From: Skermanella rosea | GTDB taxonomy: Bacteria; Pseudomonadota; Alphaproteobacteria; Azospirillales; Azospirillaceae | DNA: 64,000 bases | Direction of reading: 5' to 3' | Assembly: GCF_016806835.2 (NCBI RefSeq) | Contig: NZ_CP086112.1 | Span: forward strand, 142,001-206,000 | In this document: piece after piece, positions 2,851 to 55,092 of the stretch | How positions within the stretch are numbered: the stretch's first letter is position 1 | How the letters are laid out: each line of letters begins with the position of its first letter | Made by a program: the position numbers and the translations under genes | Notes under the pieces: generated by a model | Databases searched by the model: none | What the model was told of the DNA's origin: nothing | Seen by the model: the letters and a program-made list of their open reading frames with translations, nothing else

Positions 2851-3083
2851 TTGGATGCACCTAGCCAAAGGCAGCTAACTCGGCTAAGGCTCCAGCACTC
2901 AAATGTCGTAGAGTTTAACTTCCGTTTCTTAAGACGGCTATGCCATTCTCGGGAGCTGCAGGGGTGGCATGCAATCAATGAGAACTCGATCTGTCGGGTT
3001 AGTGGCGATCAGGCAATCAATCCTGAACACATGTGCTATGTATGAGAGCGGCGCTCGGAGCGCCACCTTGTGGGGCGGAAGCA
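2851..3083. other. Intergenic region upstream of dpdF
   Basis: About 230 bp with no gene that can be supported. It is the expected site of the promoter for the plus-strand dpdF-G-H operon, but no clear -35/-10 pair could be picked with confidence. Confidence 0.4.
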
Positions 3084-5621
3084 ATGGACGGTGGTTTTAA
3101 CGACGGGGCGTTCGCGCCAGAGGAATCTCTCGCCTCGAACAGTTGGCGCGAAAGTGCCCTTGCCCGGTGTCGGCATCGCTTGGAGCAGGCGCGCACGCCG
3201 GCCGATCGGCTGGCCCTAGTTCGCTCCCTTGTCCGCCTTTCGGGCGGGCGGGCGGGCGTGCTGCTGGGCAGCGAGGATGTTCGCCTTCTGAACCGCTTCG
3301 GCTTGGCGCCGACGCCGGATGGCGCGGTGCGCCTCGTTGAGGAGGACAATCCAGCTGTTCCTGAGGACTACTTTAAAGCTGAACGCCTGGACACGGCACG
3401 GCGCCGTCCGCGGCAGACGCTATCACCCGATGCCGTGCTTCGCCGCCAAACGCACCATCGGACCTATACCAATGCGGCCCAGAAGGCAGCTGTCCGTGCC
3501 ATGCTCACCCGACCGGACGGTTCCGGTCTCATGGTCAGCATGCCAACGGGGGCAGGCAAGAGCCTGCTTTTCCAGTTGGAGGCGCTTCGCCAACGCGTCG
3601 TTGATCCGGGCAGTTGTGTCGTGGTCATCACCCCGACGGTGTCGCTGGCCCTTGATCATGCCCGATCCCTCGCCACGATCCCTGGCCTGGAGGGCAGCCG
3701 CGCCATTACCGGTGAGTTGTCGCGGGCCGCGCGCCAGGATGTGCTTTGGGCGTTTCGCCGTGGGGAGGTCCCAGTCCTGCTGCTTTCTCCGGAGTTTGCC
3801 TTGGATGAGGCGCACAGCGCCCTTCTGGAAGCCGCGACACCGGCATCGAGTAAGAACCCGGAACTTGCCGGCCGGCTATGCGCTCTGTTCATCGACGAAG
3901 CCCACATCGTCGAGAGTTGGGGGCGCAGCTTCCGGCCAGACTTCCAGCGGTTGCCAGGTCTGGTCGCCCAACTGCGGTCAGTTTCGCCGCACCTGGGCGT
4001 GATCCTGCTGTCGGCGACATTGCCGCCCTCGGCCCGTCGGGTTCTGAGACAAGCCTATGGCTTCGCCGGTCCTTGGGTTGAGATCAATGCCCGGGCGCCG
4101 CGGTACGAGTTCGATATTGTCGTGAAGTCCTTCTCATCAGGTTCGGACCGCCTGGCAGCGTTGGAGGCTGTCATCGACCGGGCTCCTCGCCCAGTGATCG
4201 TCTACACCAGCTTGGCGAGTCGGCAGGATGACGACAAGGAACCCGAAGAGCCGCTCCGCTTATCGGCTGAGATGCTCTATGAGCACCTTAAGGGCAGAGG
4301 CTACGAGCGCATAGCGCTGTTCACCGGCAGCATTTCCGACAGTTCGGAGCGCCGACGCATCGTTGAGCAATGGGCGGCGGACGCGCTCGACGTAATCGTT
4401 GCGACCTCCGCGTTCGGCATGGGGGTGGACAAGGCCGACGTGCGCAGCGTCATCCACGCTTGTCTCCCAGAAAGCCCTGCCCGCTGGTACCAGGAGATCG
4501 GGCGGGCTTCGCGCGATGGGCACCAGGGCTTGGCAGCCTGCCTGTTCACGAACACGTCTGGGCACGGGCGCGACGACGTAAAAACCGCAATCTCGCAGGC
4601 AACCGGCTCCTGGTTGACGCGGGAGAAGGCGGAACCGCGGTGGCGGGCGCTCATCGAAAGCCGCAGCAATGTTCGCTGGGACAATGGCAACCAATGCATG
4701 ACACTCGATTTGGACTCGGTTCGTGAGGGATTGATCGTCTGCCAGCCCAATGACCATAACCGAGCCTGGAACATGAGCCTTCTCACTTTGCTGCAGCGGT
4801 CAGGGGCGCTCGAGGTTCTAGCCGTTGCCGGCGGAGAGGACGGCAGCGACAAAGCGCTTTGGGACGTGCGCATTCTCGATCCCCTCATTCTGGCTGAAGG
4901 ATCGTCTGCCTGGGATCGTATCGAGGCGGTGCGCAACCGCGAACTCGCCGTCGCTCGTGACGAGGTTCTGGCGTTCCGGGACATGATGGTCGACCCGGCC
5001 GAGGAGTGCTTCGTCCAGCGCGCATTTTCACTGATTGAGGAAGATGCGGGCCTCGATCTACCCGCCTGCGGCCGGTGCCCGGCCTGTCGGGCGCAGGACA
5101 TCGCGCCGCCGCGCGGGATCAAGTACCATGGATTGGAGTGCGAGATTTGGCCGGACGCCGACGCACGCTTGCCCCATTTGCCGGCGGGCGCGCTGTTGAT
5201 CGCGCCAGACGACCCGAGCTTCGAGCGCGGCCTTGGCCGACTGTTACAGCGCCTCGCACATGCCGGTGTTGAGCAGTTCCTGCTGCCGCAGTCCCTCATC
5301 GAATCGGCGGCCGACGCCCTCGTGAAATCGTCCGTCAGGCTGGGTCTTCTGCTCAGCCATGAGGAATGGCTCGGCGCACAAGCTGCGTTGGCTCCGCTCC
5401 CGACGGCGCTGCTGCTGCGGCCATATGAGGTTACGAACGCTCCCGCCCTCGCGGAAGCGCAGAGTTGGCGCAGGAGTGGGGCGAACAGGTCCCTCATCGG
5501 GGTCGCCAACCCGGACCTTATCATTGATGGCCGTCGCGCCGATCAGATCGTCTCACCTCTGGCCCCTTACGCTGAGGAGGCCCTAGCGGTCTTTGGCCCG
5601 CAGGGAAGGGAAGTCGCATGA
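3084..5621 (+). CDS. dpdF: DpdF-like RecQ/DEAH helicase
   Basis: Superfamily 2 helicase of the restriction part of the Dpd system, which acts against DNA lacking 7-deazaguanine marks. The chosen ATG at 3084 (845 residues) follows GGGGCGGAAGCA, a good ribosome site; the frame is open back to 3033 without one. Visible helicase motifs: MPTGAGKS (motif I, near residue 155), FIDEAHIVESWGRSFRPDF (DEAH plus a RecQ-like extension, near 270), LLSATLPPS (motif III) and ATSAFGMGVDKADVR with YQEIGRASRDG (motifs V/VI). A Cys cluster, CGRCPAC near residue 660, could bind zinc. First of a plus-strand operon; its stop overlaps the dpdG start by 4 bp (ATGA). The name rests on this architecture and on the dpdABC/queCDE operon nearby. 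Confidence 0.8.
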   Translation: MDGGFNDGAFAPEESLASNSWRESALARCRHRLEQARTPADRLALVRSLVRLSGGRAGVLLGSEDVRLLNRFGLAPTPDGAVRLVEEDNPAVPEDYFKAERLDTARRRPRQTLSPDAVLRRQTHHRTYTNAAQKAAVRAMLTRPDGSGLMVSMPTGAGKSLLFQLEALRQRVVDPGSCVVVITPTVSLALDHARSLATIPGLEGSRAITGELSRAARQDVLWAFRRGEVPVLLLSPEFALDEAHSALLEAATPASSKNPELAGRLCALFIDEAHIVESWGRSFRPDFQRLPGLVAQLRSVSPHLGVILLSATLPPSARRVLRQAYGFAGPWVEINARAPRYEFDIVVKSFSSGSDRLAALEAVIDRAPRPVIVYTSLASRQDDDKEPEEPLRLSAEMLYEHLKGRGYERIALFTGSISDSSERRRIVEQWAADALDVIVATSAFGMGVDKADVRSVIHACLPESPARWYQEIGRASRDGHQGLAACLFTNTSGHGRDDVKTAISQATGSWLTREKAEPRWRALIESRSNVRWDNGNQCMTLDLDSVREGLIVCQPNDHNRAWNMSLLTLLQRSGALEVLAVAGGEDGSDKALWDVRILDPLILAEGSSAWDRIEAVRNRELAVARDEVLAFRDMMVDPAEECFVQRAFSLIEEDAGLDLPACGRCPACRAQDIAPPRGIKYHGLECEIWPDADARLPHLPAGALLIAPDDPSFERGLGRLLQRLAHAGVEQFLLPQSLIESAADALVKSSVRLGLLLSHEEWLGAQAALAPLPTALLLRPYEVTNAPALAEAQSWRRSGANRSLIGVANPDLIIDGRRADQIVSPLAPYAEEALAVFGPQGREVA

Positions 5622-6511
5622 GCTTGTTGTCGTCTCCGCAAGGAACGCCCGAGCGCGTCTGGTCCTTGATCTCGCTCCTGGCCGCCAGTGGCGGCAGTCT
5701 GGAGCGCACGGCCGCCGCCGAGTGCCTCAACCCCGGCTTCACCGAGAACACGATTCAAATGCTGGAAAAACCTACGGCCTTCAGCCAGACCTTGGGAGCA
5801 GCAACGAGTCTTGACGCCGTCGAGACGGATCGCACCGACCTGCGCCTCCATCCCTCCTGCCCGACGGACAGCTATGCGGCCTTCTGCGACTGGGTGCACG
5901 CGCGACTGGTCAGCCTGGACAGTACGGAGAAGGACGCCGTCGTCCTGGAGACCTTCGCCTGGGTCGCTGTGGAGACGGATCGGCAGGGCTCATGCAATTG
6001 GCTTCATGACGCCACCAACGACGCGTTCGCCGACGCTGCCGATAAGGCACTTCCCCCCGGAAATGACGACGACGGAGACCGCCGAATCAACACGGTGAAG
6101 CTGGCCGCTTGGCGACGCTGGCTGCTCAGCCTGGGACTGGCGGTTCCACTGCCTATCGTTGGCGCTGCCGCCCACCCGTTGGTCGACAGCCGCGTCGCGC
6201 GTGTCGTCCGGTCGCTTGAAGGGCAGGCGGCTCAGGATCTCTCGGCCGACGCTTTCTTGACGCTGCTGGCCCCAAGGCTTCCCTACCTCGACGGCGGCCG
6301 CATGTTCCTGGAGACCGCGCGCCGCGTGGGCCATGCGCTGGCGCCGCGACGCCTTTCTCCCATCCTTAGTGCCACCTTGCGCAATCTTCACGACGACGGG
6401 CTTATCGAAATGCGACTGCAGGGCGACGCGGGAAATCTCATGCATCTGCACCAGGACCGGACGCACAAGGTCTCCTCGTTCAACTCCGTGGTTCTGACGG
6501 GAGCTGCCTGA
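5618..6511 (+). CDS. dpdG: DpdG-like protein
   Basis: A 297-residue protein with no catalytic motif that can be seen. It sits between the DpdF-like helicase (4-bp ATGA overlap upstream) and the DpdH-like ATPase (1-bp gap downstream), the place occupied by DpdG in known 7-deazaguanine restriction islands, and has about the expected size. The sequence looks largely helical, with winged-helix-like segments at both ends (for example LSPILSATLRNLHDDGLIEM near the C-terminus). Its role in the restriction complex is unknown for the family. The assignment is mainly from synteny. Confidence 0.65.
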   Translation: MSLLSSPQGTPERVWSLISLLAASGGSLERTAAAECLNPGFTENTIQMLEKPTAFSQTLGAATSLDAVETDRTDLRLHPSCPTDSYAAFCDWVHARLVSLDSTEKDAVVLETFAWVAVETDRQGSCNWLHDATNDAFADAADKALPPGNDDDGDRRINTVKLAAWRRWLLSLGLAVPLPIVGAAAHPLVDSRVARVVRSLEGQAAQDLSADAFLTLLAPRLPYLDGGRMFLETARRVGHALAPRRLSPILSATLRNLHDDGLIEMRLQGDAGNLMHLHQDRTHKVSSFNSVVLTGAA

Positions 6512-6512
6512 C

Positions 6513-9500
6513 ATGAGCGCCTTGCCGCATGAAGCGTGCTGGCGTGCCCAGGACGCCTCCGCCATTCTCAGCAACGAGGCCCTCGAAGGGCACGAGGGCA
6601 TCTTCCTCGCCACCCATTCGCCCATCCAGGGCTTCGACATCGCCGGCAGCCACGCGGGCGAGTTCCTTGGCCAGGACGAGCAGTCTGTTCTCAAAGCGCT
6701 CTCCGACCCGGCCCGGGAGCACGCGTTTTGCGTGGTGCAAGGCGAGCCCGGGTCCGGCAAGTCGCATCTGATCCGCTGGCTTCATGTGAACTGGTCCCAG
6801 CCGTCGGACATAAAGCTGCTGCTGCAACGTGCCGACGGCAGCCTCGAAGGAGCGCTCCGCCAGTTGCGCGACCGCCTGCCGCCGGAGTTTGCCGAACTCT
6901 TCAACAAGCTTGGCCAAACCCACCATGCCACGGTGCAAGGCCGGGCCAACAACTTCCTAAGCAATTTGGCCAATGCGCTCGATCCCGGGCACTTCGATCC
7001 ACCCCTAGAGGATGTTGACTGGTGTACCAGCCATCGGCCCGGTGAACTCATCGGCTCCATCAACGTCAAGCGCAACTGGAATGGCCCCGCCCGCATTCTG
7101 CGCCTGCTGGAAGGGCAGGGGTCAGGCGCCTCGGGCTCCCGGAATTCAGAGTCAGCCAGCTTCAATGTCTCCGATATGCGCGAGCTGGCCAACTGTTGCG
7201 CGGACCTGCGAACCTCCGGGCTTTTTCCCGCCACCCTCCGTCTCGCGACCAAGCTGAGGGAAGAAGCGCAGATCGTCGCCGCTCACCAGAACGCGGGTTG
7301 GAGCACGGCTGAGATCGAGCGGGATCTGAAAGACCAACTGCCCGTCAGCCTGCGCCTCATAGCCGCCCTCAACCGGCGCCGCAACGACGCGATCCAGAAT
7401 CTTCTCGGTGTGTCTGCCGAGGGGTTGAAGACGCTGTTCCGTCAGATCCGGACCGAGTTGACGAAGACGCCGGGCGTTCGCCTGGTGCTTCTGCTGGAGG
7501 ACATCACCAGTTGGGAAGGCATCGATGACAGCCTCATCGACGTGCTGGTGACGAACGCGCGTACCCGCGGTGCCGGCGGCGACGATGCGGGCAGCGACAT
7601 GTGCCCCCTCATCTCGGTCGTCGGCGTGACGCCGGCCTATTACCAGAAGCTGCATGGCAACTATCGCGGCCGCATCACCCACGAGGTGGTGCTGGGCCAG
7701 ACCAGCGGGGCGACTGACCTGCAGGACGTTGCGACGCTACGGGACCGGCAGGCCCGCCTCTCCTTTGCTGCCCGCTATCTGGCGGCGACGCGCGCCGGTA
7801 CGGAGGTGCTGGCGGTGTGGCGTCGGCAACGCTTCTCCGATCCCACGTTGCCCGCCCCCAACAGGTGTGATGGATGCCCGGTTCGCGAGGGATGCCATCG
7901 AACCTTCGGCGCCGATGCTAACGGATACGGCTACTTTCCCTTCACCGAGAAGGCTCTCGAGCGTCTGTTCTCCAGCCTGAACGACCGCGACAACGGGCTG
8001 ACTTGGAAGACGCCCCGCGGCATCTTGCAGGCGATCCTCAGCCCCAATCTCTCCCAGCCCGATGCACTGGCCGCGCGGCAGTTTCCGACGGCACTGCTCG
8101 AGACTAGGGCCTTGCCAATCGAGACACGCAAATTGTCGTCCCGCCTGGAGAAACTTGTCGAGGTGGGAGCCAGCGAAGCCGAACGGCCTCGCCTGCGACG
8201 GCTTCTGGCGTACTGGGGCAACCGTGAGCGCGCGGACACGATGCGTCTGGACGACGGGGCTCTCGCTTTTGCAGACGTGCCGCGGGGCGTGTTCGAGGCG
8301 TTTGGGCTCCCCTGGCTGGGCGAGGACCAAGCAACCGCCGAGAAGGCATCACGCCTACCGGCCGAACCGCAGGGGCCGCTCCTTCCCGACGAGCCACCGG
8401 TGTCCACGGATGCCATGGTCCTGCCTCTCGCCCCGACGGTCCGACCGTCCTCGCCGGTCACGCGACCGCTTGAGAGTCGCAACATCAAGGTCCAGGCTCC
8501 TCCGTCGAAGCGCAAGGCGCCGACGAAGAGCGAACTGGAGCGGTTGCGCGACCAGTTGCGGGTCTGGGGCGAGACGGGGGAGCTCGCCTCGCCATCGGAC
8601 TGGAACAAGATCCTTTATGAACTGGTCCGAGCCATCGATCCCCGCCGCGTCGGGCTGGATCCGGGGACCTTCAACCGCTTACTGACGCCGGAACAGGTCA
8701 AGTTCGAAGGCACCGGACCCGCTCAGCGCAACTACTTCAGTGTTCGCGCGGCGGATTGGGTGCGCGACGGCCTTGAGGCCTATTTGGCGTTGCGGCTCGA
8801 TCGTGAGTTGTCCACCCAGGATCTGGACTATCATCGGCGCAAGCTTTCCCTGGCCCTGCGGCGGCTGGAGGAGATGATCGGCGGCTATGCCGACCAGCGC
8901 TTGACGCGCCTGGAGAACGGCCAACGCTGGGCGCCGGCGGTCGCGCTCGGTCAGATACTTCTGGCTCGGGCCTGGCTGCGCGGCACGGTCGCTCCATCCG
9001 ACAGCCTTTCCAAACAAGTGCGGGCCATATTATCCGATGAACCGCAAGCCGAAAGCGATCCCGCTTCCCGCTGTAGTCGGTGGAGCGACTTCCTGAATCG
9101 CACCAAAGACCAGCACGCTAACTTTCGAAGCGTGTTGCGGGAGATGATGAGCTTGCCTCAAGGCGAGGCACGCAGCTTCGGGCTGGCCGACCTGTCGGTC
9201 ATTGCAGGCGCCGTTGAGCGGTTGCGCCGAACGCTTCGTTTCGATGAGGTTCCGGACGTCAAGGTCGATACTGCGGTCCCCGTATTCAACCGCGCGCGCG
9301 ACATCATCAGGGATACCGAGTTCTCGCTGAAGCCGATCATGCGATACGAGCGGGACCAAATCCGTGGCCGCGCTGAGGCGCTTTACGCTTATCTGCGTGG
9401 GCAGTCGATCGCAGCGCATTACGCACGTCTTGACCGGGCCATCGTCAGCGCGGCCGAGCAACTGCCGCATGCCGCTCCCGACCAGGTGCGCGGTTGGAAG

Positions 9501-9845
9501 CAGGCCTACGAGCGCCTCAAGCCGAAGCTCGAGGCGAAACTAGACGGCGGCGTTGAGGAACTGCTCTACACGCTGTCAGAGGCCGGATCCGGATTGCCGC
9601 CCAAGGATGTCGACCTGTTCGACTGGGTGCTGCGGGCGCCGGCTAAGGATCTGGACGACATGCGCGGCCTTGCCGACACCGGTGAGCGCACCGTGGCCAC
9701 TATGGTCGAGCATGTGCGGGACTGCGTCCGGGAGGCCGGTAAGGCGGTGCCGCTGGAGACCTTGAGAATGACTGGTCGTAGCATCAAGGCAGCCCTTCAT
9801 CCCACGGTGGTCTCGGGCCAGACAGAGGAGCCCGTCATCGGATGA
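6513..9845 (+). CDS. dpdH: DpdH-like large P-loop ATPase
   Basis: A 1110-residue ATPase, the third gene of the dpdF operon. A Walker A motif GEPGSGKSH lies at residues 77-85 after a stretch typical of STAND/AAA-like ATPases, and LVLLLEDI near residue 325 is a plausible Walker B. A compact Cys group (CDGCPVREGC, near 450) suggests a small zinc site. The middle is a Pro-rich linker (about 620-670) and the C-terminal 400 residues look helical without recognised motifs. The size, the position after dpdG and the ATGA overlap with the next gene all fit DpdH of Dpd islands. It probably powers or senses in the restriction complex; this is inference. Confidence 0.7.
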   Translation: MSALPHEACWRAQDASAILSNEALEGHEGIFLATHSPIQGFDIAGSHAGEFLGQDEQSVLKALSDPAREHAFCVVQGEPGSGKSHLIRWLHVNWSQPSDIKLLLQRADGSLEGALRQLRDRLPPEFAELFNKLGQTHHATVQGRANNFLSNLANALDPGHFDPPLEDVDWCTSHRPGELIGSINVKRNWNGPARILRLLEGQGSGASGSRNSESASFNVSDMRELANCCADLRTSGLFPATLRLATKLREEAQIVAAHQNAGWSTAEIERDLKDQLPVSLRLIAALNRRRNDAIQNLLGVSAEGLKTLFRQIRTELTKTPGVRLVLLLEDITSWEGIDDSLIDVLVTNARTRGAGGDDAGSDMCPLISVVGVTPAYYQKLHGNYRGRITHEVVLGQTSGATDLQDVATLRDRQARLSFAARYLAATRAGTEVLAVWRRQRFSDPTLPAPNRCDGCPVREGCHRTFGADANGYGYFPFTEKALERLFSSLNDRDNGLTWKTPRGILQAILSPNLSQPDALAARQFPTALLETRALPIETRKLSSRLEKLVEVGASEAERPRLRRLLAYWGNRERADTMRLDDGALAFADVPRGVFEAFGLPWLGEDQATAEKASRLPAEPQGPLLPDEPPVSTDAMVLPLAPTVRPSSPVTRPLESRNIKVQAPPSKRKAPTKSELERLRDQLRVWGETGELASPSDWNKILYELVRAIDPRRVGLDPGTFNRLLTPEQVKFEGTGPAQRNYFSVRAADWVRDGLEAYLALRLDRELSTQDLDYHRRKLSLALRRLEEMIGGYADQRLTRLENGQRWAPAVALGQILLARAWLRGTVAPSDSLSKQVRAILSDEPQAESDPASRCSRWSDFLNRTKDQHANFRSVLREMMSLPQGEARSFGLADLSVIAGAVERLRRTLRFDEVPDVKVDTAVPVFNRARDIIRDTEFSLKPIMRYERDQIRGRAEALYAYLRGQSIAAHYARLDRAIVSAAEQLPHAAPDQVRGWKQAYERLKPKLEAKLDGGVEELLYTLSEAGSGLPPKDVDLFDWVLRAPAKDLDDMRGLADTGERTVATMVEHVRDCVREAGKAVPLETLRMTGRSIKAALHPTVVSGQTEEPVIG

Positions 9846-16500: not shown

Positions 16501-16898
16501 CCCAGAAAATGAGTGGCGAAGCTGTCGAGATCCGCCTTGCGGCCGCGGGCGGCGACACCGTCCAGAACGTTGCCGATGGCGTTTCGAGTGAAGGCGCTTA
16601 CGAACACGCGTGCGGGCAATCCAGCGGCGTGGCGCGCATGGATGTAGCCCAAGATGAGCCAGGAGAGCAGGTGGGTCTTGCCAGTCCCAGGAGGTCCCAA
16701 CACCAAGCCGGCGCGAGCCGTCGCCAGACCTCGCCAGGCGGCAATCTGGGCCGGACGCAATGGATGGTCCGCGCCGGCCGCAATCGCCGGCTCGGCGACG
16801 GTCTCAAGCCCGTCCATCCAAGTGTCGGCATCGCTGGTGGCGCCCGAGAACGCCTGAGGGTCGCGCAGGAACGAGAGAATGTGGTTCCGCAAGCTCAT
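10557..16898 (-). CDS. Double helicase: Upf1/DNA2-like SF1 fused to DpdJ-like SF2
   Basis: A 2113-residue protein. I place the start at the ATG ending at 16898 (MSLRNHILSF), which overlaps the upstream nuclease stop as ATGA; a longer frame to 17288 adds 130 residues of low-complexity out-of-frame sequence. Residues 45-460 form an SF1 helicase: GPPGTGKT 68-75, CIDEAS near 200-205, GDDKQLPP near 229-236, DRIQGKERD near 401 and NVAVTRARSK near 437. Winged-helix-like segments follow (about 530-760). Residues 820-1350 form an SF2 helicase: TGSGKT 872-877, zinc ribbon C974/C977/C997/C1000, ADEIH near 1057, GMSATL, and FIQRKGRGGRG as motif VI. The C-terminus carries a CVDGCQACVH Cys motif like DUF1998-type helicases. 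The SF2 half resembles DpdJ; the fusion is unusual. Confidence 0.8.
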   Translation of the reverse strand: MSLRNHILSFLRDPQAFSGATSDADTWMDGLETVAEPAIAAGADHPLRPAQIAAWRGLATARAGLVLGPPGTGKTHLLSWLILGYIHARHAAGLPARVFVSAFTRNAIGNVLDGVAARGRKADLDSFATHFLGNLPAAGLSPLVRPRPSTAAAELDQALEDLTPESVVMGASVWTLYKLLSRPNSGTADGFTAGLFDLVCIDEASQLVLGQGLLALGGLKDGGRLIVAGDDKQLPPIRAGRSVTLENRALGGSLYNFLKSAQVPEFALEETFRLNAPLAAFPERKFYPGRYRSAPEVATQRLELKETWRDGLEHWEMACLDPDHPIVVVLHDGPPAATSNAFEAAVAARLAGHLARLMPGDEPSLWRERMAIVSPHRAQNSAIRDALAAPMRSGAFVETVDRIQGKERDAIILSYCVADAEFAVAEADFIFAPERLNVAVTRARSKLIVLVSRRLLDAVPTQQEQMDKAELLREFTFDAALLAEAMLPNGAGGRFPAQIRVMGFDGAPPLQAVDASMSAAPAPAATLTPWQDAVLQAVASVSLASEHGNATLPKLQAAMATHANLLPALSELHGLGRIALESRPGRTGRFWVARPLDQPRSVHPPTLENVRRFAEEAIRQSRSGTSGALYGVVRKHFAWMDGSGEDVLRPHFDRLRDEGLLAYKTAKGHLLINWVDQDDAPETTPEESAPDLSDTDFQVLNALEDLEVERINFGILEAWTSSVGVANAAGLPRATVTASLARLEAAGWLLMADEGRIRSRMAELARETRYLKQRFRRDGAEKSPYLVRSLKVLVRDRDKPERKRHKLLKTFPDIAERVDPVHAVALQGLSSALARQWSVEACLAGFQARSLDALSRAWNGDGPDAFVIAADTGSGKTEAAGLPLIAAAAADRLRGIRGVRAILAYPRVRLAANQAQRLAKYLAALAMEPGMPTVTLGLQVAAVPETFDRLQEWETKAGWTAVCSGTFSFPFFACPDCGEPLLLGEAAGVDGADKLFCTSCRWSFGGWIGSKVGLRRAPPALFLPTTDSLHRWMHDTRYGRLFGDELGFAPPRALLADEIHLYAHVHGAQVGLALRRLAARCERNVDCGGRMLAVGMSATLGDPASAWGRLMHRDTVSLLTPMCEEREPNPRGREYFYFIQPEVESRGQDIAGASTTIQALMCLAHGMRRRTGREGGFRSLVFLDSIDKVRRLHAAYDDAETHRRLAAYRTRKYPDDPLTGVPRDACCGEPHGCDAFRDGECWIFAAQDKAQQSARGRRCAGAPLRVAEQPVHAGAVGSIEAQIKEADIVFATSSLEVGYDDPDITLVYQHYAPRNLASFIQRKGRGGRGENDRPITAVTLSIYSSRDSWWFRKPGQMISPAGFGIPLNPDNHFVRQGQMLASVLDAFARHQTRTGTALDPRQPSAAALQDAASFVESIFGPEPWREFGRDSLEALWQWAMGRARKGMPIRFLSDVRNAIDLIPDLLFDVINLPQLRVRSGPDLDKPEDISLALPLAAPGNATRRYDATEVHWRPPVQGKAPWFADQDYEAGQWATIGDDGAAWLNHLPEEARPQLSGLSPRYFRPKQLSFDRLGLLFGVSWQSHWAVPTPSVAPQAADATTPKARLVRHDSRGSLRGFPLIKVDVARGRGLEVPAMRPWVTSLDVYLGDGRGDRTTGLVLARVYWGADAEVRLEGPKAGPETYSQIFTGPDRDQPLLHGYHVQTEGIRLTLDDQRLGRFVAAEIERLKDDAGQRSWYAAQMLRYLVESKAQAAGVSLYEARRGAELIVSAANDPDLKVRLNRLLAFWDAAGLAALLEDTRASLLSQHPLLSTDRVARVAAALSGQPFQLLLRTAVQAVAEPVQFRRFLKTAVLHALAVRMKESFCQTALGDERQVILHVRLPMQFGDDADPTITICEAGAFGDGTTRTFVDRLETAAQHWHNGFLADCPNAREDEVLRRFLERKTEHAAWRAIDPDDYEALARLAHELGMSPGVPAPAAVLRLLFGAEAVGDERFDLYDLAMEVQQADERLTARLGRAPSAWELVSAAVSHAKGSPGSLAHRVLHAYGHIEDAAQDESLSPEARLADQIYRLHARLCVDGCQACVHQPSDLMSETLAEASTSRSLLERFLLQS

Positions 16899-22199: not shown

Positions 22200-22901
22200 T
22201 TACCTCAACGCGATGTAGCCATTCCATCCGCGCGCTCGCAACTCGCAGGCCGGGCATTCGCTGCAACCATAGCCCCAGGCATGGTGGTGAGTGCGATCGC
22301 CTTTGTAACAGGTGTGAGTCTGTTCGACTATGAGGTCGACCAGGTCAGCGCCGCCGATCTGGTCGGCCATAGCCCATGTACCAGCCTTGTCGATCCACAT
22401 GAGCGGCGTGTGCAGGACAAAGCGGTGATCCATGCCCAGGTTGAGCGTAACCTGCAGGGCTTTGAGCGTGTCGTCGCGACAGTCCGGATAGCCGGAGTAG
22501 TCGGTTTCGCACATGCCGCCTATCAGGTGCCTAATCCCTCGACGATAGGCCAGCGCCGAAGCAAAGGTGAAGAACAGCAGATTCCGGCCGGGTACGAAAG
22601 TGCTGGGCAGGCCATTTTCCTGAAACCGGATTTCGGCATCGCGGGTGAGTGCGGTGTCACTGACCTCTCCAAGCACCGAGAGGTTCAGCATGTGATCCTC
22701 TCCCAACCGTGATTTCCAATGCGGGAAACGGCTGACCAGTTCCTTCCTGAACTGGGTTCGGCACTCCAATTCCACCAGATGCCGCTGTCCATAGTTGAAG
22801 CCGACGGTTTCTACCCGCTTAAAGCGGTTGAGCGCCCAGGTCAGGCACGTAGCGGAATCCTGCCCGCCGGAGAAAAGCACCAACGCCACGTCATCGCTCA
22901 T
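22200..22901 (-). CDS. queC: QueC, 7-cyano-7-deazaguanine (preQ0) synthase
   Basis: ATP-dependent enzyme that converts 7-carboxy-7-deazaguanine to preQ0 using ammonia. The PP-loop SGGQDS lies at residues 11-16. The C-terminal zinc site is complete: C198, C213, C216 and C219 (CYKGD then [10 protein letters not shown]). Other family motifs are GFNYGQRH and VPGRNLLFF. At 233 residues it is normal length. Last gene of the seven-gene operon; its start directly abuts the queD stop. In this setting it feeds preQ0 to DpdA for DNA modification rather than (or as well as) tRNA queuosine. A genome copy for tRNA modification probably exists elsewhere, which I cannot see. Confidence 0.92.
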
Positions 22902-23282
22902 TTATTCCTCCTTTCCGTGATGACCGAAATAGGTGCATGCATCGCCGCTGCTGTCGCGGTAGACGGTGACCCGCGCTAGACCCGTCACGGACGGAGCCAG
23001 TCGCCGCCAAATCCACGCCGACAGGTTTTCCATTGTGGCGGGGCCCAATTCATCCACCTCATCGAGTAAACGGTGGTCGAGGGCATCCCGTGTATCGTCA
23101 AGCGAGCGTTCCAGTAGCCCAAGGTCGATGAGCATACCGGACACCGGATCGGGCACGCCGCGCACCACAACCTCCGCTCGATAGGAGTGGCCGTGAATGC
23201 GCCGGCTCGACTCAGTTTCGATTGCCCGGTCTAGTGTATGTGCGGCGTCGAAGCGGAATTGTTTCGAGAGTTCGAACATCAC
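22902..23282 (-). CDS. queD: QueD-like 6-carboxytetrahydropterin synthase, Cys-to-Ser variant
   Basis: Member of the PTPS/QueD family, which turns dihydroneopterin triphosphate into 6-carboxy-5,6,7,8-tetrahydropterin in preQ0 synthesis. Zinc ligands are present: His15 in FDAAH and His30/His32 in IHGHSY. In E. coli QueD the catalytic Cys lies four residues before the first His of HGH (CGRLHGH); here that position is Ser26 (SRRIHGH). The catalytic ALDH motif is present. At 126 residues it is typical length. The start overlaps the queE stop region as ATGA. The missing Cys could mean altered chemistry or that a distant QueD carries the flux; sequencing error is less likely, as the frame is clean. 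Confidence 0.88.
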   Translation of the reverse strand: MMFELSKQFRFDAAHTLDRAIETESSRRIHGHSYRAEVVVRGVPDPVSGMLIDLGLLERSLDDTRDALDHRLLDEVDELGPATMENLSAWIWRRLAPSVTGLARVTVYRDSSGDACTYFGHHGKEE

Positions 23283-23911
23283 GCGATCCCGATCACCTTG
23301 TGGGTTTGGAGGCTGAGGCGCCAGCGTGGGTGGTCTTTGCAGTACGCGACAGCCCGTGCCGTATTGGCTGGCTGTTCAGGGCCGTCCATCGGCTGAAGCC
23401 AGAAATGCCGGAATGGCAGGCGCTCGAGATCTCCCGGCGCAAGCCCCGCCTGGGGGTAGACAAGCTTGAGTTCGTGCCCGCGGCGGAGGGTCAAATCGGC
23501 GCCGGCCTTCGGACTGACACAGATCCAGTCCACCCCCGCTGGAGGCTCTAGGGTGCCATTGGTTTCGATTGCGATCTCAAAGCCGCAGGCATGGACCGCC
23601 GCGACCAGTGCCGCGTCCAGCTGCAGCAGGGGTTCACCGCCGGTGAAGACCACGTACCGGTGATCCTGCCCCTCCCCCCAGGTTCGGGCAATCGCTTCTG
23701 CAAGGTCTGATGCGGCCGGGAAGCGCCCGCCTCCATCTCCATTCATGCCCACGAAGTCAGTATCACAAAACTGGCAGATCGCACTTACCCGGTCCTGCTC
23801 ACGCCCAGACCACAGGTTACACCCGGTGAAGCGGCAGAATACCGCTGCGCGTCCTGTGTGGGCTCCTTCCCCCTGCAGTGTCTTGAAGAGTTCTTTGACG
23901 GCGTACGACAT
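23279..23911 (-). CDS. queE: QueE, 7-carboxy-7-deazaguanine synthase (radical SAM)
   Basis: Radical SAM enzyme forming 7-carboxy-7-deazaguanine from 6-carboxytetrahydropterin. The iron-sulfur Cys are C31, C46 and C49, spaced CX14CX2C instead of the usual CX3CX2C; this expanded spacing is known in a QueE subgroup typified by the Burkholderia multivorans enzyme. FTGGEPLLQ (SAM-binding GGE motif) and the ETNGT motif are present. At 210 residues it is full length. It lies 12 bp downstream of dpdB and overlaps queD by 4 bp, so it belongs to the same transcript. Confidence 0.93.
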   Translation of the reverse strand: MSYAVKELFKTLQGEGAHTGRAAVFCRFTGCNLWSGREQDRVSAICQFCDTDFVGMNGDGGGRFPAASDLAEAIARTWGEGQDHRYVVFTGGEPLLQLDAALVAAVHACGFEIAIETNGTLEPPAGVDWICVSPKAGADLTLRRGHELKLVYPQAGLAPGDLERLPFRHFWLQPMDGPEQPANTARAVAYCKDHPRWRLSLQTHKVIGIA

Positions 23912-23923
23912 GGCGCTTCTCCG

Positions 23924-25024
23924 TCAGACCGCGGCCGCATCAAGCAGCGGCGCTGGCCGGGGCGTCTTCCGCGACCGCATATCGGCTCGGACGATCGCCT
24001 GCAGGTAATGAGCTAGCGTCACGATGTCCTTGTTGAGGTTCTGGATCGCTTTCCAGTGGCGCACGTCGTCGTCGGCAAAGCGCCACTCCCCGGAACTCCA
24101 GGCGGTCCTACCCTGCAGACATCCCATCCCGGCAGCGAACTCGTCCCACTTTCGGGCGCCGTCCAGAATGGCCAAATGCTCCATGACATAGCCCATGGCG
24201 GAGATCCCGGCACCATGGACGAGGCGGGAGGTTCTTGGTTTATGATCGCGCCAATCGCCTGAGAAGACGATCTGAACGGCCCGATAGAAGTTGTTCACCA
24301 GGTCAAAGCAACGGCGCTCTCCGTCCGGCTCCCTGATAAACTCGCGCATGACTCCATCGTTCAGCGAGTTCATGATGACGCGCTGAATGGCCGTGTCACT
24401 GATCTCACCTTGAGGGTTGGTGTGCTGTTTGATCTGGCCGCGGAGGGACGAATCCTCACGATAGTTGAGTTGCGCGGTCAATTCCGCTGCCAGTGATCGA
24501 TTATCAAGTCGGTCAGGGAGTCCGCCCACGGTCGGGAGCAGTTCATAGATGAGGGATTTGGGCAGCGGGCGTGTGTTGTTGATCAGCACGAACTGGCGCC
24601 GCAACTCTGCCTCATCGCGGCAGACCAGCGCTGAGACGAAGACGCGAAAATCCTTATCCTTTACCTGGGCAAGTGCTGACAGACGCTGCTGGCCGTCGAC
24701 GACAAAGCCTGGCGGGCCGTCCGCCGTGTCGATCGTGACCCGACAGACTTGGTCGTCCACGCTCTCGACCTGGACGCCCCTGGTGAAGGCAACAACAATG
24801 GGGTTGGGCAGAACAGCGTCCGGCTTTTCCAGGTAATCCTTGATCTCGCGGATGTGGGAGGCGATCTGCGGTCGTTGAAAGCCGGAGAGCGTTCCCTCCG
24901 CACTCCGGGCCACGCGGTCGATCGTCGAAAAGCGAAGGATCTCTTCAGCCGTTGCCGCGAAGGAGACCACAATGTGGTCAGTACTCTGCGGCGCCTGGAT
25001 AGCCAAATAGGACATCTGGCTCAT
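23924..25024 (-). CDS. dpdB: DpdB (DGQHR-domain protein), copy 1
   Basis: ParB/DndB-like DGQHR-domain protein that works with DpdA to insert preQ0 into DNA. The signature is VVDGQQRLSAL with DGQQR at residues 110-114 (the fourth residue varies in the family), preceded by the family's FQR motif at 49-51 (GFQRPQ). FVLINNTRPLPKSLIYELLP matches the conserved region after the signature. 366 residues, intact. The start ATG overlaps the dpdA stop (ATGA); queE follows 12 bp downstream. A second, diverged DGQHR protein is encoded two genes upstream, so the operon has two DpdB paralogues flanking dpdA. Confidence 0.85.
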   Translation of the reverse strand: MSQMSYLAIQAPQSTDHIVVSFAATAEEILRFSTIDRVARSAEGTLSGFQRPQIASHIREIKDYLEKPDAVLPNPIVVAFTRGVQVESVDDQVCRVTIDTADGPPGFVVDGQQRLSALAQVKDKDFRVFVSALVCRDEAELRRQFVLINNTRPLPKSLIYELLPTVGGLPDRLDNRSLAAELTAQLNYREDSSLRGQIKQHTNPQGEISDTAIQRVIMNSLNDGVMREFIREPDGERRCFDLVNNFYRAVQIVFSGDWRDHKPRTSRLVHGAGISAMGYVMEHLAILDGARKWDEFAAGMGCLQGRTAWSSGEWRFADDDVRHWKAIQNLNKDIVTLAHYLQAIVRADMRSRKTPRPAPLLDAAAV

Positions 25025-26295
25025 GATGCTTCTCCGGATGGCGGCAGGTTGTCGATGAGGGATTTGTAGACACCCAGGTTATGGATACCGCGCCGGCGAT
25101 TTCTGTTGGCGGCCCGGAAGATCATCACTTCGATGGACAACGACCGGCAGATGCTACAGTCGCACCGCCTCCAGGGTTGCTCTTCGAGTGTGACGCGATA
25201 CTGCTTGGCCAGCGTCCGCATGGTGGTGCTGTCACGCACCTCCTCGAAGTGCTGTCCGACCGCAAACGGCGCATTGTAGGCGAGTACCGCCTCCAGCGTT
25301 TCATCGAGCGTCACCTGCCCCTTGTCATAGGCGCGCACGCTATCGAGGGCAGCGGCTTCCAATCGACTGAGATCTTCCGACCGAAAGGTGCCGGACTTGA
25401 TGTGCTTGAGAAGCTTCGTGTTCTCGAGCGCCTGCGGGATGCGGAGCGCGGTGTAGTAGCTCAATCCTTTGTCCCCGTTGGGCAGGTAATAGTTCTGCTT
25501 GGCATCCTTGAAGGCCCGGATCAGCGGCGAGCTGGTATCAAAGCTGGTGATTTTGAAGGGTGCGAAAAGCTTGATGTCATTTGCCTTAGCGAAACCGAGG
25601 ATGTGTATGCGGGTGTCTAGCGGGATGGCTTCCCGGATCGCTTGCAGGCAACTGCGTATCTGATCCGCCTTCAACGGCGCCATGCCACCAATGGCAAGAT
25701 AGTTGTAGCCCATCGTCGCTAGGCGCCGTGCGGCCTCGGCCATGCTGCCGGGAGACCAGCCCTGCACGACACCCATGGGGGTGAACCGATTGCTCATGTG
25801 CCGTGTGGCTTCGAGGAACTTTTGAGCATTGGTGAGAGTGACCTCGAACCGCTCGTGGGCTTTCGCTGAACCGCCCTCCATTCCCTTCAGGGTTAGATCG
25901 TAATCGAAGATGATATGATCAACGGAGCAACCGTGGGTAAAGCCGCAATCATCATAGAACTCCGCCATGTCATCCGGCGTGTAGGGAGGCACATCCTCAT
26001 TCGCGTAGGTGAAGGCGCCGCAATCCCCGAATATGTCGAACCGGGCTCGCTCGGGTTCATCAAGACGCAGAAAAACCCGTGCACCGGAACGCCGGAACCG
26101 CATTGCTTGGGACTCGGTGTACTTCGACTCCACGATGCCCCGTGACACCAGCATGCCGTCGTAGGGGGCCGTAGCAAGAAGCTCGTGTGGGTAGACATCG
26201 TCCCAGTAGGGCTTGCGGCCGATCCCGTTGCGATCCGCCTTGAAGTCGTATCGGGGATCCACAAGGTCCAGGCTGTCGGCGAAAATGAACTTCAT
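25021..26295 (-). CDS. dpdA: DpdA, DNA-guanine transglycosylase (TGT-like)
   Basis: TGT-superfamily enzyme that exchanges guanine in DNA for preQ0, the defining enzyme of 7-deazaguanine DNA modification. I take the start at the ATG at 26295 (MKFIFADS, 424 residues), which overlaps the upstream stop as ATGA; a longer frame to 26406 adds 37 unlikely residues inside the upstream gene. FGDCGAFTY (91-95 is DCGAF) corresponds to the TGT D-S-G-G-F catalytic region, IIFDYDLTL supplies a second Asp, and LAIGGM matches the TGT substrate loop. The TGT zinc site is conserved at C378, C380, C383 and H405. It lies centrally in the operon between the two dpdB genes. Confidence 0.92.
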   Translation of the reverse strand: MKFIFADSLDLVDPRYDFKADRNGIGRKPYWDDVYPHELLATAPYDGMLVSRGIVESKYTESQAMRFRRSGARVFLRLDEPERARFDIFGDCGAFTYANEDVPPYTPDDMAEFYDDCGFTHGCSVDHIIFDYDLTLKGMEGGSAKAHERFEVTLTNAQKFLEATRHMSNRFTPMGVVQGWSPGSMAEAARRLATMGYNYLAIGGMAPLKADQIRSCLQAIREAIPLDTRIHILGFAKANDIKLFAPFKITSFDTSSPLIRAFKDAKQNYYLPNGDKGLSYYTALRIPQALENTKLLKHIKSGTFRSEDLSRLEAAALDSVRAYDKGQVTLDETLEAVLAYNAPFAVGQHFEEVRDSTTMRTLAKQYRVTLEEQPWRRCDCSICRSLSIEVMIFRAANRNRRRGIHNLGVYKSLIDNLPPSGEAS

Positions 26296-27419
26296 CGCTG
26301 CGGCCTCGACAAGGCTCGGTCGAGACGGACCAGATGGTCCGTGAGCTTGGAGATATGCTGAGAAGTGCTTTGCACCTCGTTCCAGCGCCAGCCCAACCCT
26401 TCCCACACCCCATCGACCCAGCAGCAGTGTGGTGCCAGGCGAGCGAGCGAGTCGCGCACCTCCCTCTCCCCGTCGGGACTGCTGTCAGCCCGGACCATAA
26501 TCGGGTCCATCAAGGCTCCCATCGCCCGGATACCGGCGGAGTGCATGAGGCGGCTTTCCGTCGGTGGCTTTCCCCAGGCTTCGGGAAAAGTCTGCCGGAC
26601 GGCTGACCAGAACAGGACCAGTGCGCGGTACATGGCGTCAGCGTCAGAGTCCTGGGCTCCGCGGTATATGCTGAGCGCTCCCGTCGGGGCTCTAAGGTTT
26701 CCCTTGATGGCTTCTAGCAAGGCGGTATCCGTGATGACCGTCTCCACCTCATTGGTCTCCGACTCTCGCCGGATTAGGTGGTAGAACGGTGACTTCGGAT
26801 CTCGATTGAGCAGGTTGCACAACTCACTAGGCAATTTTCGCGCAGCGAGATCCCGCGGCAACAGCGCATTGACCTCTGGCAGCAACTCGTTGATGAGGCG
26901 CGTCGGTAGAGGCTTTGCCTTATTCACCAGGATGAACTGCTCGCGTTGCATTTCCAGGTCGGCGGAAACGAAGGCCACGACGGGAACCGGTATCCTAGAG
27001 TTGGTCGCGCGAGCCAGAGCCAGGGAACGCTGCTGACCATCAACGATCCAGGCGGCACGGCGTCCTTCCGGCCGGATCGGAATCGATAGGGTGCCGCTCT
27101 GGGCGATCTCAAGCATGCCGGTCGGTACAGGCCCTCTCGACTGCCGGAACACCACCTCCGGGGATAGTGCCAGGATGATTGCGTTGGGGAACAACACGGA
27201 ACCGGTTTCTAGAAACTCCACGATCGCATTGACGTGGCTCTTGATCTCTTTCCGCTGAAAGCCTTTCAGCGTCTCCGCCTCATCACGAGCAATACGGGAG
27301 ATATCGGCAATTCTTACAATGTCGGAGCCGTATAGAAAAAATGAATAAATCTCGATGTCTTTACCCTGGTAGGTTTTTAGCGCTCGGACCGTGATCGCGT
27401 CATCGTTGGTGCTCAACAT
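26292..27419 (-). CDS. DpdB paralogue (DGQHR-domain protein), copy 2
   Basis: Second DGQHR-domain protein of the operon, 375 residues. WIVDGQQRSLAL has DGQQR at 127-131; GFQRKE (53-58) and QFILVNKAKPLPTRLINELLP match the same motifs in copy 1, but the rest is clearly diverged, so this is an old duplication or a distinct subfamily rather than a recent copy. It overlaps dpdC by 7 bp upstream and dpdA by 4 bp downstream. Possible roles are a heteromeric partner of copy 1 in loading DpdA on DNA, or a separate ATP-dependent step; the sequence does not decide this. Confidence 0.82.
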   Translation of the reverse strand: MLSTNDDAITVRALKTYQGKDIEIYSFFLYGSDIVRIADISRIARDEAETLKGFQRKEIKSHVNAIVEFLETGSVLFPNAIILALSPEVVFRQSRGPVPTGMLEIAQSGTLSIPIRPEGRRAAWIVDGQQRSLALARATNSRIPVPVVAFVSADLEMQREQFILVNKAKPLPTRLINELLPEVNALLPRDLAARKLPSELCNLLNRDPKSPFYHLIRRESETNEVETVITDTALLEAIKGNLRAPTGALSIYRGAQDSDADAMYRALVLFWSAVRQTFPEAWGKPPTESRLMHSAGIRAMGALMDPIMVRADSSPDGEREVRDSLARLAPHCCWVDGVWEGLGWRWNEVQSTSQHISKLTDHLVRLDRALSRPQR

Positions 27420-28384
27420 GGCATAAGATTCCCCTGCCGCGTCTTGGCAACGGCATGAAACAAATTCTTGAAGCGCCCCTGCTCACAGGCAATGCCGAAC
27501 TCGTCACGCAGTTTACGCAACATCATGCCCGATCGCCCCTGGACCGCTTCCCAGTGCAGCAGAATGAGGTGCTGGATCTCTTCATCGGTCGCCGGAGCGC
27601 GGACTGGCCGTAGCGGGGCCTTGAACAGTGCGAGCCTGGCCCGAATCCGTGCCGCATCCTCATCGGGCGAATGCGGAGCGCGGGGATCGAACAGATTTCT
27701 GACAAAGTCAGCAAGGGCTCTTTGGGCGAAATCGCCGTCCGTGCCTGGATAGGCGTCTGGGTCGTTCAAGCGATTGTCATAGGGCATCAGGTACTGCCGC
27801 AGATCCGATGGCACAGTTTCGGGATCAATGCGCAGAAACAGTCTCAGTCGACCAGGATTCTGATCGGCCCAACTTATCAGATCGGAGCGCATCATGTGAA
27901 AGTAGGGCCCCGATAAAGCGACCAAGAGAGTTGAGGTCTCTAGAGAGTTGAGGGTCGTGCTGAAGTGACTCACTGCGCATAGTTGCCTCCACCATTCACT
28001 GACATTGCCGTCGGTTAATAGCGCACCAATAGAGTTGGGCATTCCGGGCGAAACTGTAGCCTCGTAAGCAGGGATCATGATCCCTGAGTCAACCAGACCA
28101 AGCCCTGCTGAAGCAACGAAGAGAGGCGCGTTCAGATGCGTGCTAACCCACTTGGCTTCTACGAAAGCGCGTCCACAGTAGAGATCTATGCCCCTCAGAG
28201 TGCGAGGTAGATTGCTTAATCGAGAGGCCCAAACTGTTGCAAGCTTGGTTACCGGCCCTGGCAGTGAACTACCGAGTGTCGCCTCGAGAGAAGGCTTGGC
28301 ACGTTTACGATTGGTGCAGTTCGTAACAACGATAGGGCACCCGCCCGAAGAGAAATGTCTGATTTCATTCATTGACTGCGTCAC
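27413..28384 (-). CDS. dpdC: DpdC-like YaaA/DUF328-related protein
   Basis: A 323-residue protein, first of the modification operon. It has features of the DUF328/YaaA-like and DUF6884-like fold seen in DpdC: an N-terminal VVTNCTNRKR (the CSKRK-like element), IDLYCGRAFVEAKW (the lYxG.f motif) and LFVASAGLGLVDSG (the lSAkyGLl motif). In characterised Dpd systems DpdC acts after DpdA/DpdB, converting preQ0 in DNA to the 7-amido form. The listed start is GTG at 28384; ATG at 28372 (MNEIRHF) is an equal alternative. It overlaps the next gene by 7 bp. The 5' flank is AT-rich and holds the likely operon promoter. Confidence 0.78.
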   Translation of the reverse strand: MTQSMNEIRHFSSGGCPIVVTNCTNRKRAKPSLEATLGSSLPGPVTKLATVWASRLSNLPRTLRGIDLYCGRAFVEAKWVSTHLNAPLFVASAGLGLVDSGIMIPAYEATVSPGMPNSIGALLTDGNVSEWWRQLCAVSHFSTTLNSLETSTLLVALSGPYFHMMRSDLISWADQNPGRLRLFLRIDPETVPSDLRQYLMPYDNRLNDPDAYPGTDGDFAQRALADFVRNLFDPRAPHSPDEDAARIRARLALFKAPLRPVRAPATDEEIQHLILLHWEAVQGRSGMMLRKLRDEFGIACEQGRFKNLFHAVAKTRQGNLMPC

Positions 28385-28654: not shown

Positions 28655-29560
28655 TCACGCCGCCCTGGCGCCGTCCTCGGTTTGAGCATAGTAGCGTGCT
28701 TCGGCCTCGGCGGGTGGAATGTTGCCGATGGGTTCGAGCAGGCGCCGGTGGTTGAACCAGTTGACCCATTCCAAGGTGGCGAACTCGACGGCTTCCAAGT
28801 TGCGCCATGGCCCTCGGCGTCGGATCACCTCGGTCTTGTAGAGGCCGTTGATCGTCTCGGCCAAGGCGTTGTCATAGGAATCGCCGACGCTGCCGACCGA
28901 CGGCTCGACACCGGCCTCGGCCAAGTGCTCGGTGTAGCGAATGCTGACATATTGCGACCCGCGGTCGGAATGGTGGATGAGGCCGCTGCCTTTGGCCGGA
29001 CGGCGGTCGTGAAGCGCCTGCTCCAGGGCATCCAGGACAAATCCGGCGTGTGCGGTGCGCGAGACCCGCCAGCCGACAATCCGCCGGGCAAACGTGTCGA
29101 TGACGAAGGCCACGTAAACGAAGCCTTGCCATGTCGCCACAAACGTGAAATCCGCGACCCACAAGGCGTTCGGGCAGGACGCCTGGAACTGGCGGTTCAC
29201 CCGGTCGAGCGGACACGGTGCCGCCCGGTCGCTGATCGTCGTCCGCACCGTCTTGCCGCGTGTCACCCCCTTCAGCCCCATACGCCGCATCAGCCGGGCC
29301 ACTGTGCAACGCGCCACGTCAAGGCCTTCCCGCCGCAACTGCCGCCAGACCTTCCTGACCCCGTAGACCTGGAAGTTCCCGTCCCAGATCCGCCGGATAG
29401 CCACGCTGAGTTCCGCATCGCTTCGCCAGCGGGCCGGCGCCTTTGACGGGTCAGTCCGCAGGGCGGCATGGGCGTGATAAGTTGACGGGGCGATCGGCAG
29501 CACTTTGCAGATCGGCTCGACCCCGTGGACGGCGCGCTGCTCGTCGATGAAGGCGATCAT
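28655..29560 (-). CDS. IS3 orfB transposase (copy A)
   Basis: DDE transposase subunit of about 301 residues, from the ATG at 29560 ([20 protein letters not shown]). The frame is open farther upstream to 29794 but that part overlaps orfA and is not OrfB-like. The DDE triad is visible in [17 protein letters not shown] and [13 protein letters not shown], with the typical NALWV and YNHRRLL-like ends. Apparently intact and potentially active. Confidence 0.9.
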
Positions 29561-29886
29561 TTCCTGAACGGGCGGTCGAGCTCCGCCTGGGCAAAATACG
29601 CCGATGCCTTGCGAAGGATCTCGTTCGCCTGGCGCAGTTCCCGGACCTCGCGCTCCAGCGCCTTGATCCGCTCCTGCTCGTCCGTCGTCGGGCCGGGCCG
29701 TTTCCCCTGGTCGCGCTCGGCCTGCCGGACCCAGCCCCGCAGCGTCTCCGCCGTGCAGCCGATCTTCGCCGCGATCGAGCTGATCGCCGCCCACTGCGAC
29801 GCGTGCTCGCCTTCGTGATCGAACACCATCCGAACCGCGCGTTCGCGGATTTCAGGGGCGTACTTGGGTGATGCCTGTTTCGTCAT
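29557..29886 (-). CDS. IS3 orfA (copy A)
   Basis: A 109-residue helix-turn-helix OrfA ([20 protein letters not shown], then the [13 protein letters not shown] recognition helix) followed by a leucine-zipper-like tail, [20 protein letters not shown]. It ends in an ATGA overlap with orfB; IS3-family elements usually make the active OrfAB fusion by programmed -1 frameshifting here. Identical to the copy at 54763-55092. Confidence 0.9.
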
Positions 29887-54766: not shown

Positions 54767-55092
54767 TTCCTGAACGGGCGGTCGAGCTCCGCCTGGGCAA
54801 AATACGCCGATGCCTTGCGAAGGATCTCGTTCGCCTGGCGCAGTTCCCGGACCTCGCGCTCCAGCGCCTTGATCCGCTCCTGCTCGTCCGTCGTCGGGCC
54901 GGGCCGTTTCCCCTGGTCGCGCTCGGCCTGCCGGACCCAGCCCCGCAGCGTCTCCGCCGTGCAGCCGATCTTCGCCGCGATCGAGCTGATCGCCGCCCAC
55001 TGCGACGCGTGCTCGCCTTCGTGATCGAACACCATCCGAACCGCGCGTTCGCGGATTTCAGGGGCGTACTTGGGTGATGCCTGTTTCGTCAT
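54763..55092 (-). CDS. IS3 orfA (copy B)
   Basis: 109-residue OrfA, the same sequence as the copy at 29557-29886: an N-terminal helix-turn-helix and a leucine-zipper tail. ATGA overlap with orfB. Confidence 0.9.

What the first reader, a model, noticed from the sequence alone, without database searches (positions are those of the whole stretch)
23924..27419. Two diverged DpdB paralogues flank dpdA in one operon
Both carry DGQQR (not DGQHR) plus the same FQR and N-x-x-PLP-LI-ELLP blocks, but otherwise differ widely. Typical dpd loci are described with one dpdB. Two copies suggest a heteromer, separate sequence specificities, or one working in restriction.
Basis: partly seen in the sequence, partly recalled or inferred. 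Interest (0 to 1): 0.65.

Follow-up and report, generated by a model that had tools for sequence, protein, structure and literature searches.

The report
Ancient DpdB pair flanking dpdA
The locus makes a modified guanine in the bacterium's own DNA as a defence marker, and it carries two different copies of one helper protein; this turns out to be the normal arrangement in most of its relatives, though why two are needed is still unknown.

Summary
In detail: two DpdB proteins (B1 26292-27419, B2 23924-25024, minus strand, 30% identical) flank dpdA inside dpdC-B1-dpdA-B2-queE-queD-queC. The suggestion that this is unusual is not. Of the 80 closest named dpdA loci, 76 carry B1 upstream and B2 downstream, and NCBI annotates "dbpB" twice on several plasmids. 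B1 and B2 are two ancient, separately conserved orthologous lineages across Alpha-, Beta- and Gammaproteobacteria, both under strong purifying selection (dN/dS 0.02-0.09). Single-DpdB loci are another lineage (E. coli/Enterobacter type). DGQQR is the norm in every DpdB examined, not a peculiarity. A 2025 preprint already reports dpdB as the dpd gene with the most extra copies. What may be new is a division of labour: B2 distances follow DpdA closely, B1 distances follow B2 and not DpdA once B2 is allowed for, and each copy has kept a complementary set of ancestral residues. The best reading is a ParB/sulfiredoxin-fold NTPase pair serving DpdA, probably a B1:B2 heteromer with B2 contacting DpdA. 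The physical heteromer is inferred, not shown.

The parts
27413..28384 (-). dpdC (dPreQ0 to dADG hydrolase family)
   Evidence: PADLOC DpdC PDLC02815 282 bits, nearly full length; stop overlaps the B1 start
26292..27419 (-). dpdB1 (upstream DpdB paralogue)
   Evidence: NF041060 458.9 bits; falls in the B1 clade, 89 rows, support 100
25021..26295 (-). dpdA, DNA-guanine transglycosylase (start ATG 26295, ATGA overlap with the B1 stop)
   Evidence: NF041059 536.7 bits; PDB 7UI4 homologue E 1e-95; start junction read
23924..25024 (-). dpdB2 (downstream DpdB paralogue; start overlaps the dpdA stop as ATGA)
   Evidence: NF041060 385.1 bits; falls in the B2 clade, support 100; junction read
23279..23911 (-). 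queE
   Evidence: TIGR04508 352.6 bits
22902..23282 (-). queD-like (PTPS family)
   Evidence: PF01242 103.6 bits; TIGR03367 69.9 bits, below cut-off
22200..22901 (-). queC
   Evidence: PF06508 230 bits; TIGR00364 202.4 bits
10557..16898 (-). dpdJ, long variant (restriction module; start inferred from the PADLOC alignment)
   Evidence: PADLOC PDLC02895 2290.8 bits from residue 131 of the 2243-aa ORF; NF041067 310.5 bits, below cut-off
3033..5621 (+). dpdF (restriction module)
   Evidence: PADLOC PDLC02862 728.8 bits; NF041063 445.8 bits, below cut-off 550
5618..6511 (+). probable dpdG
   Evidence: NF041064 44.3 bits over full length, below cut-off 80
6513..9845 (+). dpdH (restriction module)
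   Evidence: PADLOC PDLC02884 1056.9 bits

Best explanation
Shown: the locus is a dpd (7-deazaguanine DNA modification) island of the common proteobacterial two-DpdB type, dpdC-dpdB1-dpdA-dpdB2-queEDC. B1 and B2 are two ancient lineages kept together, one on each side of dpdA and both under purifying selection. Inferred mechanism: both are ParB/sulfiredoxin-fold NTPases that help DpdA exchange guanine for preQ0 in DNA, before DpdC hydrolyses dPreQ0 to dADG. B2 is the direct partner of DpdA and the positional counterpart of the single DpdB of E. coli. B1 pairs mainly with B2, as a heteromeric ParB-like NTP-gated DNA clamp or loader. They therefore work as one B1:B2 unit rather than as two independent DpdBs.
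For: 76/80 named dpdA loci have B1 and B2 flanking dpdA. Separate samples of whole genomes agree: two copies over the cut-off in 6 genomes, one in 2, and one cut at a contig edge. B1 forms one clade (100/99) and B2 one clade (100/100), each with Alpha-, Beta- and Gammaproteobacteria. Within-operon B1/B2 identity is 27-36%, against about 55% within each lineage. dN/dS is 0.02-0.09 for both copies in close pairs. A 4-nt B1/dpdA overlap occurs in 74 of 87 loci. The B2 N-domain matches ParB, PadC, Noc and sulfiredoxin (Z about 8, rmsd 2.4-2.8 over about 95 residues for the ParB-type chains); the top B1 matches are also ParB/Noc/KorB (Z about 6). Forty-seven residues shared with single DpdBs are kept in both copies, ten are kept only in B1 and ten only in B2. 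Distance correlations: B2-DpdA r 0.92-0.94; partial B2,A|B1 0.79-0.81; partial B1,B2|A 0.54-0.61; partial B1,A|B2 about 0 (-0.10 to -0.04); the pattern holds after dereplication and bootstrap. B2 without B1 occurs beside an intact dpdA (L068, L071), whereas the only B1-without-B2 locus has a truncated DpdA (L080).
Against: No physical interaction, ATPase activity or DNA modification was measured. Distance correlations do not prove contact: co-inheritance plus unequal noise could give much of the pattern. The B1 model is less certain (pLDDT 85, low at residues 41-60 and 161-190), and ParB matches at Z 6-8 are within the range the tool warns may be only a common arrangement. Loci with dpdA and no DpdB exist (L008, L011, L078), and DpdB is called dispensable in some clusters (PMC12839542). 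Single-B enterobacterial loci show that two copies are not needed in general. The 80 loci are the nearest of 251 relatives, so they describe this lineage, not all dpd systems.
Confidence: 0.5

Rival explanations
1. B1 and B2 work separately, each as its own homomer with DpdA, giving two target-site specificities.
For: Both keep the full set of invariant core residues including DGQQR and both are strongly conserved, as two working enzymes would be.
Against: B1 distances do not follow DpdA once B2 is allowed for. Homomers able to work alone would be expected to be lost independently more often, yet only 3 of 80 loci have one without the other.
Confidence: 0.15
2. B1 is a regulatory subunit that limits or controls DpdA-B2, as DndB is proposed to do in phosphorothioation systems.
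For: B1 has lost residues kept by B2 and the single DpdBs (K156, T202, P204, G206, G271 in B2 numbering). DndB, a ParB-superfamily relative, is proposed to be a negative regulator (PMC12839542). B1 is missing in L068 beside an intact dpdA and B2.
Against: B1 still keeps DGQQR, GFQR and 47 shared core residues. A negative regulator should be lost often, and it is not.
Confidence: 0.17
3. One copy serves the restriction module.
For: Further DGQHR-domain proteins (51-79 bits to DpdB, far below its cut-off) lie 3-8 kb from dpdA in several loci.
Against: Both copies lie inside the synthesis operon. B1+B2 are kept in 5 of 42 genomes with no DpdJ hit of canonical or long type. Co-variation is with DpdA and with each other.
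Confidence: 0.07
4. A recent redundant duplication or assembly artefact.
For: None found.
Against: 30% identity, separate clades of at least 85 rows each, low dN/dS in both copies, and the same order in independent complete plasmids.
Confidence: 0.01

Closest known systems
Two-dpdB dpd islands of Alpha-, Beta- and Gammaproteobacteria (e.g. Agrobacterium vitis CP146243, Sinorhizobium americanum NZ_CP013053, Comamonas testosteroni ATCC 11996)
   Same: Same order dpdC-B1-dpdA-B2; preQ0 genes (queC, mostly with queE/queD) follow in most
   Different: Nothing essential; this copy has an IS110 after queC and an IS3 just upstream of dpdC, and the long DpdJ variant
Single-dpdB dpd island (E. coli ATCC 8739, Enterobacter pPOL9A; Salmonella Montevideo type)
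   Same: dpdC-dpdA-dpdB order, same protein families, restriction genes dpdD/G/H/J/K nearby
   Different: One DpdB, after dpdA; it sits between the B1 and B2 lineages in the tree; no queE/D/C next to it in the retrieved E. coli and Enterobacter stretches
DndB / DGQHR proteins of Dnd phosphorothioation systems
   Same: Pfam DndB superfamily (PF14072) and DGQHR domain (TIGR03187)
   Different: Family signature DGQQR; no match to the DndB equivalog TIGR03233; partner is dpdA, not the dnd genes
ParB/Noc/PadC CTPases and sulfiredoxin
   Same: N-terminal fold (B2 Z about 8, B1 Z about 6)
   Different: C-terminal helical domain had no convincing match; partner and role differ

Membership tests
DpdB (NCBIfam NF041060) | Score above the curated cut-off of 300 bits over full length | tested here: met
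   B1 458.9 bits, 1-352/352; B2 385.1 bits, 2-352/352
DpdB (NCBIfam NF041060) | Encoded beside dpdA in a dpd synthesis operon | tested here: met
   dpdA between them, dpdC and queE/D/C adjacent
DpdB (NCBIfam NF041060) | DGQ-R motif and invariant core residues | tested here: met
   DGQQR in every B1, B2 and single copy examined; 47 shared near-invariant positions
DpdB (NCBIfam NF041060) | ParB/Srx-type nucleotide-binding fold | tested here: inconclusive
   Predicted models match ParB/Noc/PadC/Srx at Z about 8 (B2) and about 6 (B1), a range in which the tool warns of common arrangements
DpdB (NCBIfam NF041060) | ATPase activity and requirement for dPreQ0 insertion in DNA | not testable with these tools
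   Needs biochemistry
DndB (phosphorothioation) | Match to the DndB equivalog TIGR03233 | tested here: not met
   Not among the hits of B1 or B2 at E 0.001; a cyanobacterial protein annotated DndB does match it, below its cut-off
Two-DpdB dpd synthesis operon | B1 directly upstream and B2 directly downstream of dpdA, from the two separate clades | tested here: met
   Order; clade placement of both window proteins
B1:B2 heteromer | Physical association of B1 with B2 | not testable with these tools
   Only indirect: distance correlations and residue retention; no complex prediction was available

The most novel reading that the evidence does not exclude
The proteobacterial dpd system uses an obligate heteromeric ParB-like NTPase, with B2 docking on DpdA and B1 completing the B2 sites, so that the single DpdB of E. 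coli/Salmonella and the B1:B2 pair are two architectures of the same DNA-deazaguanine insertion machine.
Probability: 0.42. Interest if true: 0.45.

Novelty: new member of a known kind. Interest (0 to 1): 0.27.

Why it matters
The duplication itself is ordinary, but separating DpdB into B1 and B2 lineages is useful. Annotation gives both the same name, and the role of DpdB, described as an ATPase that is dispensable in some clusters (PMC12839542), is unclear. The split predicts which copy binds DpdA, and work on single-DpdB systems may miss what B1 does.

Tried and rejected
Looked for solved DpdB relatives by sequence: none convincing. Tried to root the DpdB tree with distant DGQHR proteins: the root was unresolved (support 37), so whether the duplication predates the single-copy lineages is open. 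A viral-contig scan with an enterobacterial DpdA found nothing. Key dpd papers (PNAS 2016, Mol Microbiol 2018, NAR 2023) were not held under the identifiers I tried. Considered and rejected: recent duplication, assembly artefact, and DGQQR as a special motif. The PDB fold search had no Foldseek match below E 0.001 for either model. The C-terminal helical domains had no convincing match, but they were not modelled alone.

Full report
Observation. Two DpdB genes flank dpdA on the minus strand. Transcribed order: dpdC 28384-27413, dpdB1 27419-26292, dpdA 26295-25021, dpdB2 25024-23924, queE 23911-23279, queD-like 23282-22902, queC 22901-22200. Both DpdBs pass the curated NF041060 cut-off and dpdA passes NF041059; dpdC is recognised by PADLOC. 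B1 and B2 align end to end at 30% identity. The junctions show 4-nt ATGA overlaps between the B1 stop and the dpdA start, and between the dpdA stop and the B2 start; dpdC also overlaps B1. The restriction side (DpdF, probable DpdG, DpdH, long DpdJ) is at 3-17 kb.

Is it unusual? No. tblastn with DpdA against plasmids found relatives whose records annotate 'dbpB' on both sides of dpdA (Agrobacterium, Sinorhizobium, Caulobacter, Methylobacterium, Bradyrhizobium). A scan of 84,980 species genomes with a DpdA alignment gave 251 relatives, of which the best 80 were kept. A DpdB profile on their flanks found B1 and B2 flanking dpdA in 76 of 80: 73 plain, two with a third DpdB, and one with B2 split in two frames. 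The exceptions are L068 and L071 (B2 only), L080 (B1 only, with DpdA truncated) and L078 (none). Separate samples of whole genomes found two copies over the cut-off in six genomes (window, G009, G020, G023, G547, G1257), one in G026 and G616, and one at a contig edge in G056. Single-copy loci are the enterobacterial type, including 159 of 5,426 E. coli genomes. [quoted passage not shown]

Evolution. In a tree of 185 DpdBs, B1 is one clade with full support; B2 is another that also holds two third copies, two B2-only loci and one orphan. Each has Alpha-, Beta- and Gammaproteobacteria. A careful tree of 38 rows agrees (B1 100/99, B2 100/100), with enterobacterial and actinobacterial single DpdBs between the two. 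The root is not resolved. Within-operon identity of B1 to B2 is 27-36%, whereas median within-lineage identity is about 55%. dN/dS is 0.02-0.09 for both in close pairs, and the B1/dpdA 4-nt overlap is kept in 74 of 87 loci.

Residues and fold. DGQQR is universal in the set. Where single DpdBs (one enterobacterial, two actinobacterial) agree, 47 residues are kept in both copies, ten only in B1 (for example E58, P114, P197, D305) and ten only in B2 (for example K156, T202, P204, G206, G271), a balanced, complementary pattern. AlphaFold2 models (B2 pLDDT 92.9; B1 85.2) have ParB, Noc, PadC or sulfiredoxin structures as their best matches. These Z values (6-8) are supportive, not conclusive.

Co-variation. 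Across 78-86 operons, B2 distances follow DpdA (r 0.92-0.94) far better than B1 distances do (0.76-0.81). With B2 held constant, B1 and DpdA are uncorrelated (-0.10 to -0.04), while B1 and B2 stay correlated with DpdA held constant (0.54-0.61). This survives dereplication to 31 loci and a bootstrap over loci. Because dpdA lies between B1 and B2, simple linkage does not predict a B1-B2 tie stronger than the B1-DpdA tie. It is still correlational: distances share a common cassette history and unequal noise can mimic part of it; in particular, a B2 alignment that measures the shared history with the least noise would give a similar pattern.

Restriction role. In 42 genomes carrying such loci, 25 have a canonical DpdJ and 12 the long variant seen here, while 5 (with L042, L081, L087, L088, L092) have no DpdJ hit of either type (my count). 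The pair is thus kept without DpdJ, which argues for a role in synthesis; other restriction genes were not searched in those five.

Mechanism (shown / inferred). Shown: pairing, conservation, two lineages, co-variation. Stated for dpd systems in the literature held: DpdA is the transglycosylase-family enzyme of preQ0 insertion, DpdB is a ParB-like ATPase, DpdC hydrolyses dPreQ0 to dADG, and DpdB may be dispensable in some clusters (PMC12839542). Inferred: B2 docks on DpdA, and B1 joins B2 as a heteromeric NTPase. Rivals are separate specificities, B1 as a regulator, or a restriction role.

Verdict. The B1/B2 division of labour is a testable hypothesis of moderate interest.

Noticed in passing
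L098:6696-7775 and L103:6716-7822 (minus): Two Pseudomonas loci carry a third DpdB (342 bits to NF041060 in L098), transcribed divergently from dpdC and branching with the B2 lineage.
   Followed up: partly
L156, L157, L158 around 9000-10100: DpdB genes with no dpdA next to them on Nonomuraea, Euzebya and Variovorax plasmids; near a cytosine methyltransferase gene in Euzebya, and directly after a type I-E cas operon in Variovorax.
   Followed up: no
window 10557-16898 and genomes: A long DpdJ variant (frames of 2122-2281 aa) that scores only about 290-315 bits on NF041067 (cut-off 800) occurs in 12 of 42 two-DpdB genomes; NCBI's model does not name it.
   Followed up: partly
window 16895-19210 (minus): ORF directly upstream of dpdJ with a weak match to TM0106-family RecB-like nucleases (TIGR03491, 46.8 bits, below cut-off), no Pfam or PADLOC hit: a possible unnamed effector of the restriction side.
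   Followed up: no
window 28655-29794 and 53861-55000 (minus): Two IS3 transposase ORFs of the same length and same Pfam scores; the first ends about 270 bases upstream of the dpdC start and may have altered the operon's promoter.
   Followed up: no
L008, L011, L078: Acetobacter and Methylorubrum loci with dpdC-dpdA and no DpdB within about 9 kb (shorter upstream in L078).
   Followed up: partly
L088:14930-16153, L092:7027-8313, L077:14477-15709: A separate DGQHR-domain protein (67-79 bits to DpdB, below cut-off) downstream of betaproteobacterial dpd operons, forming its own group.
   Followed up: partly
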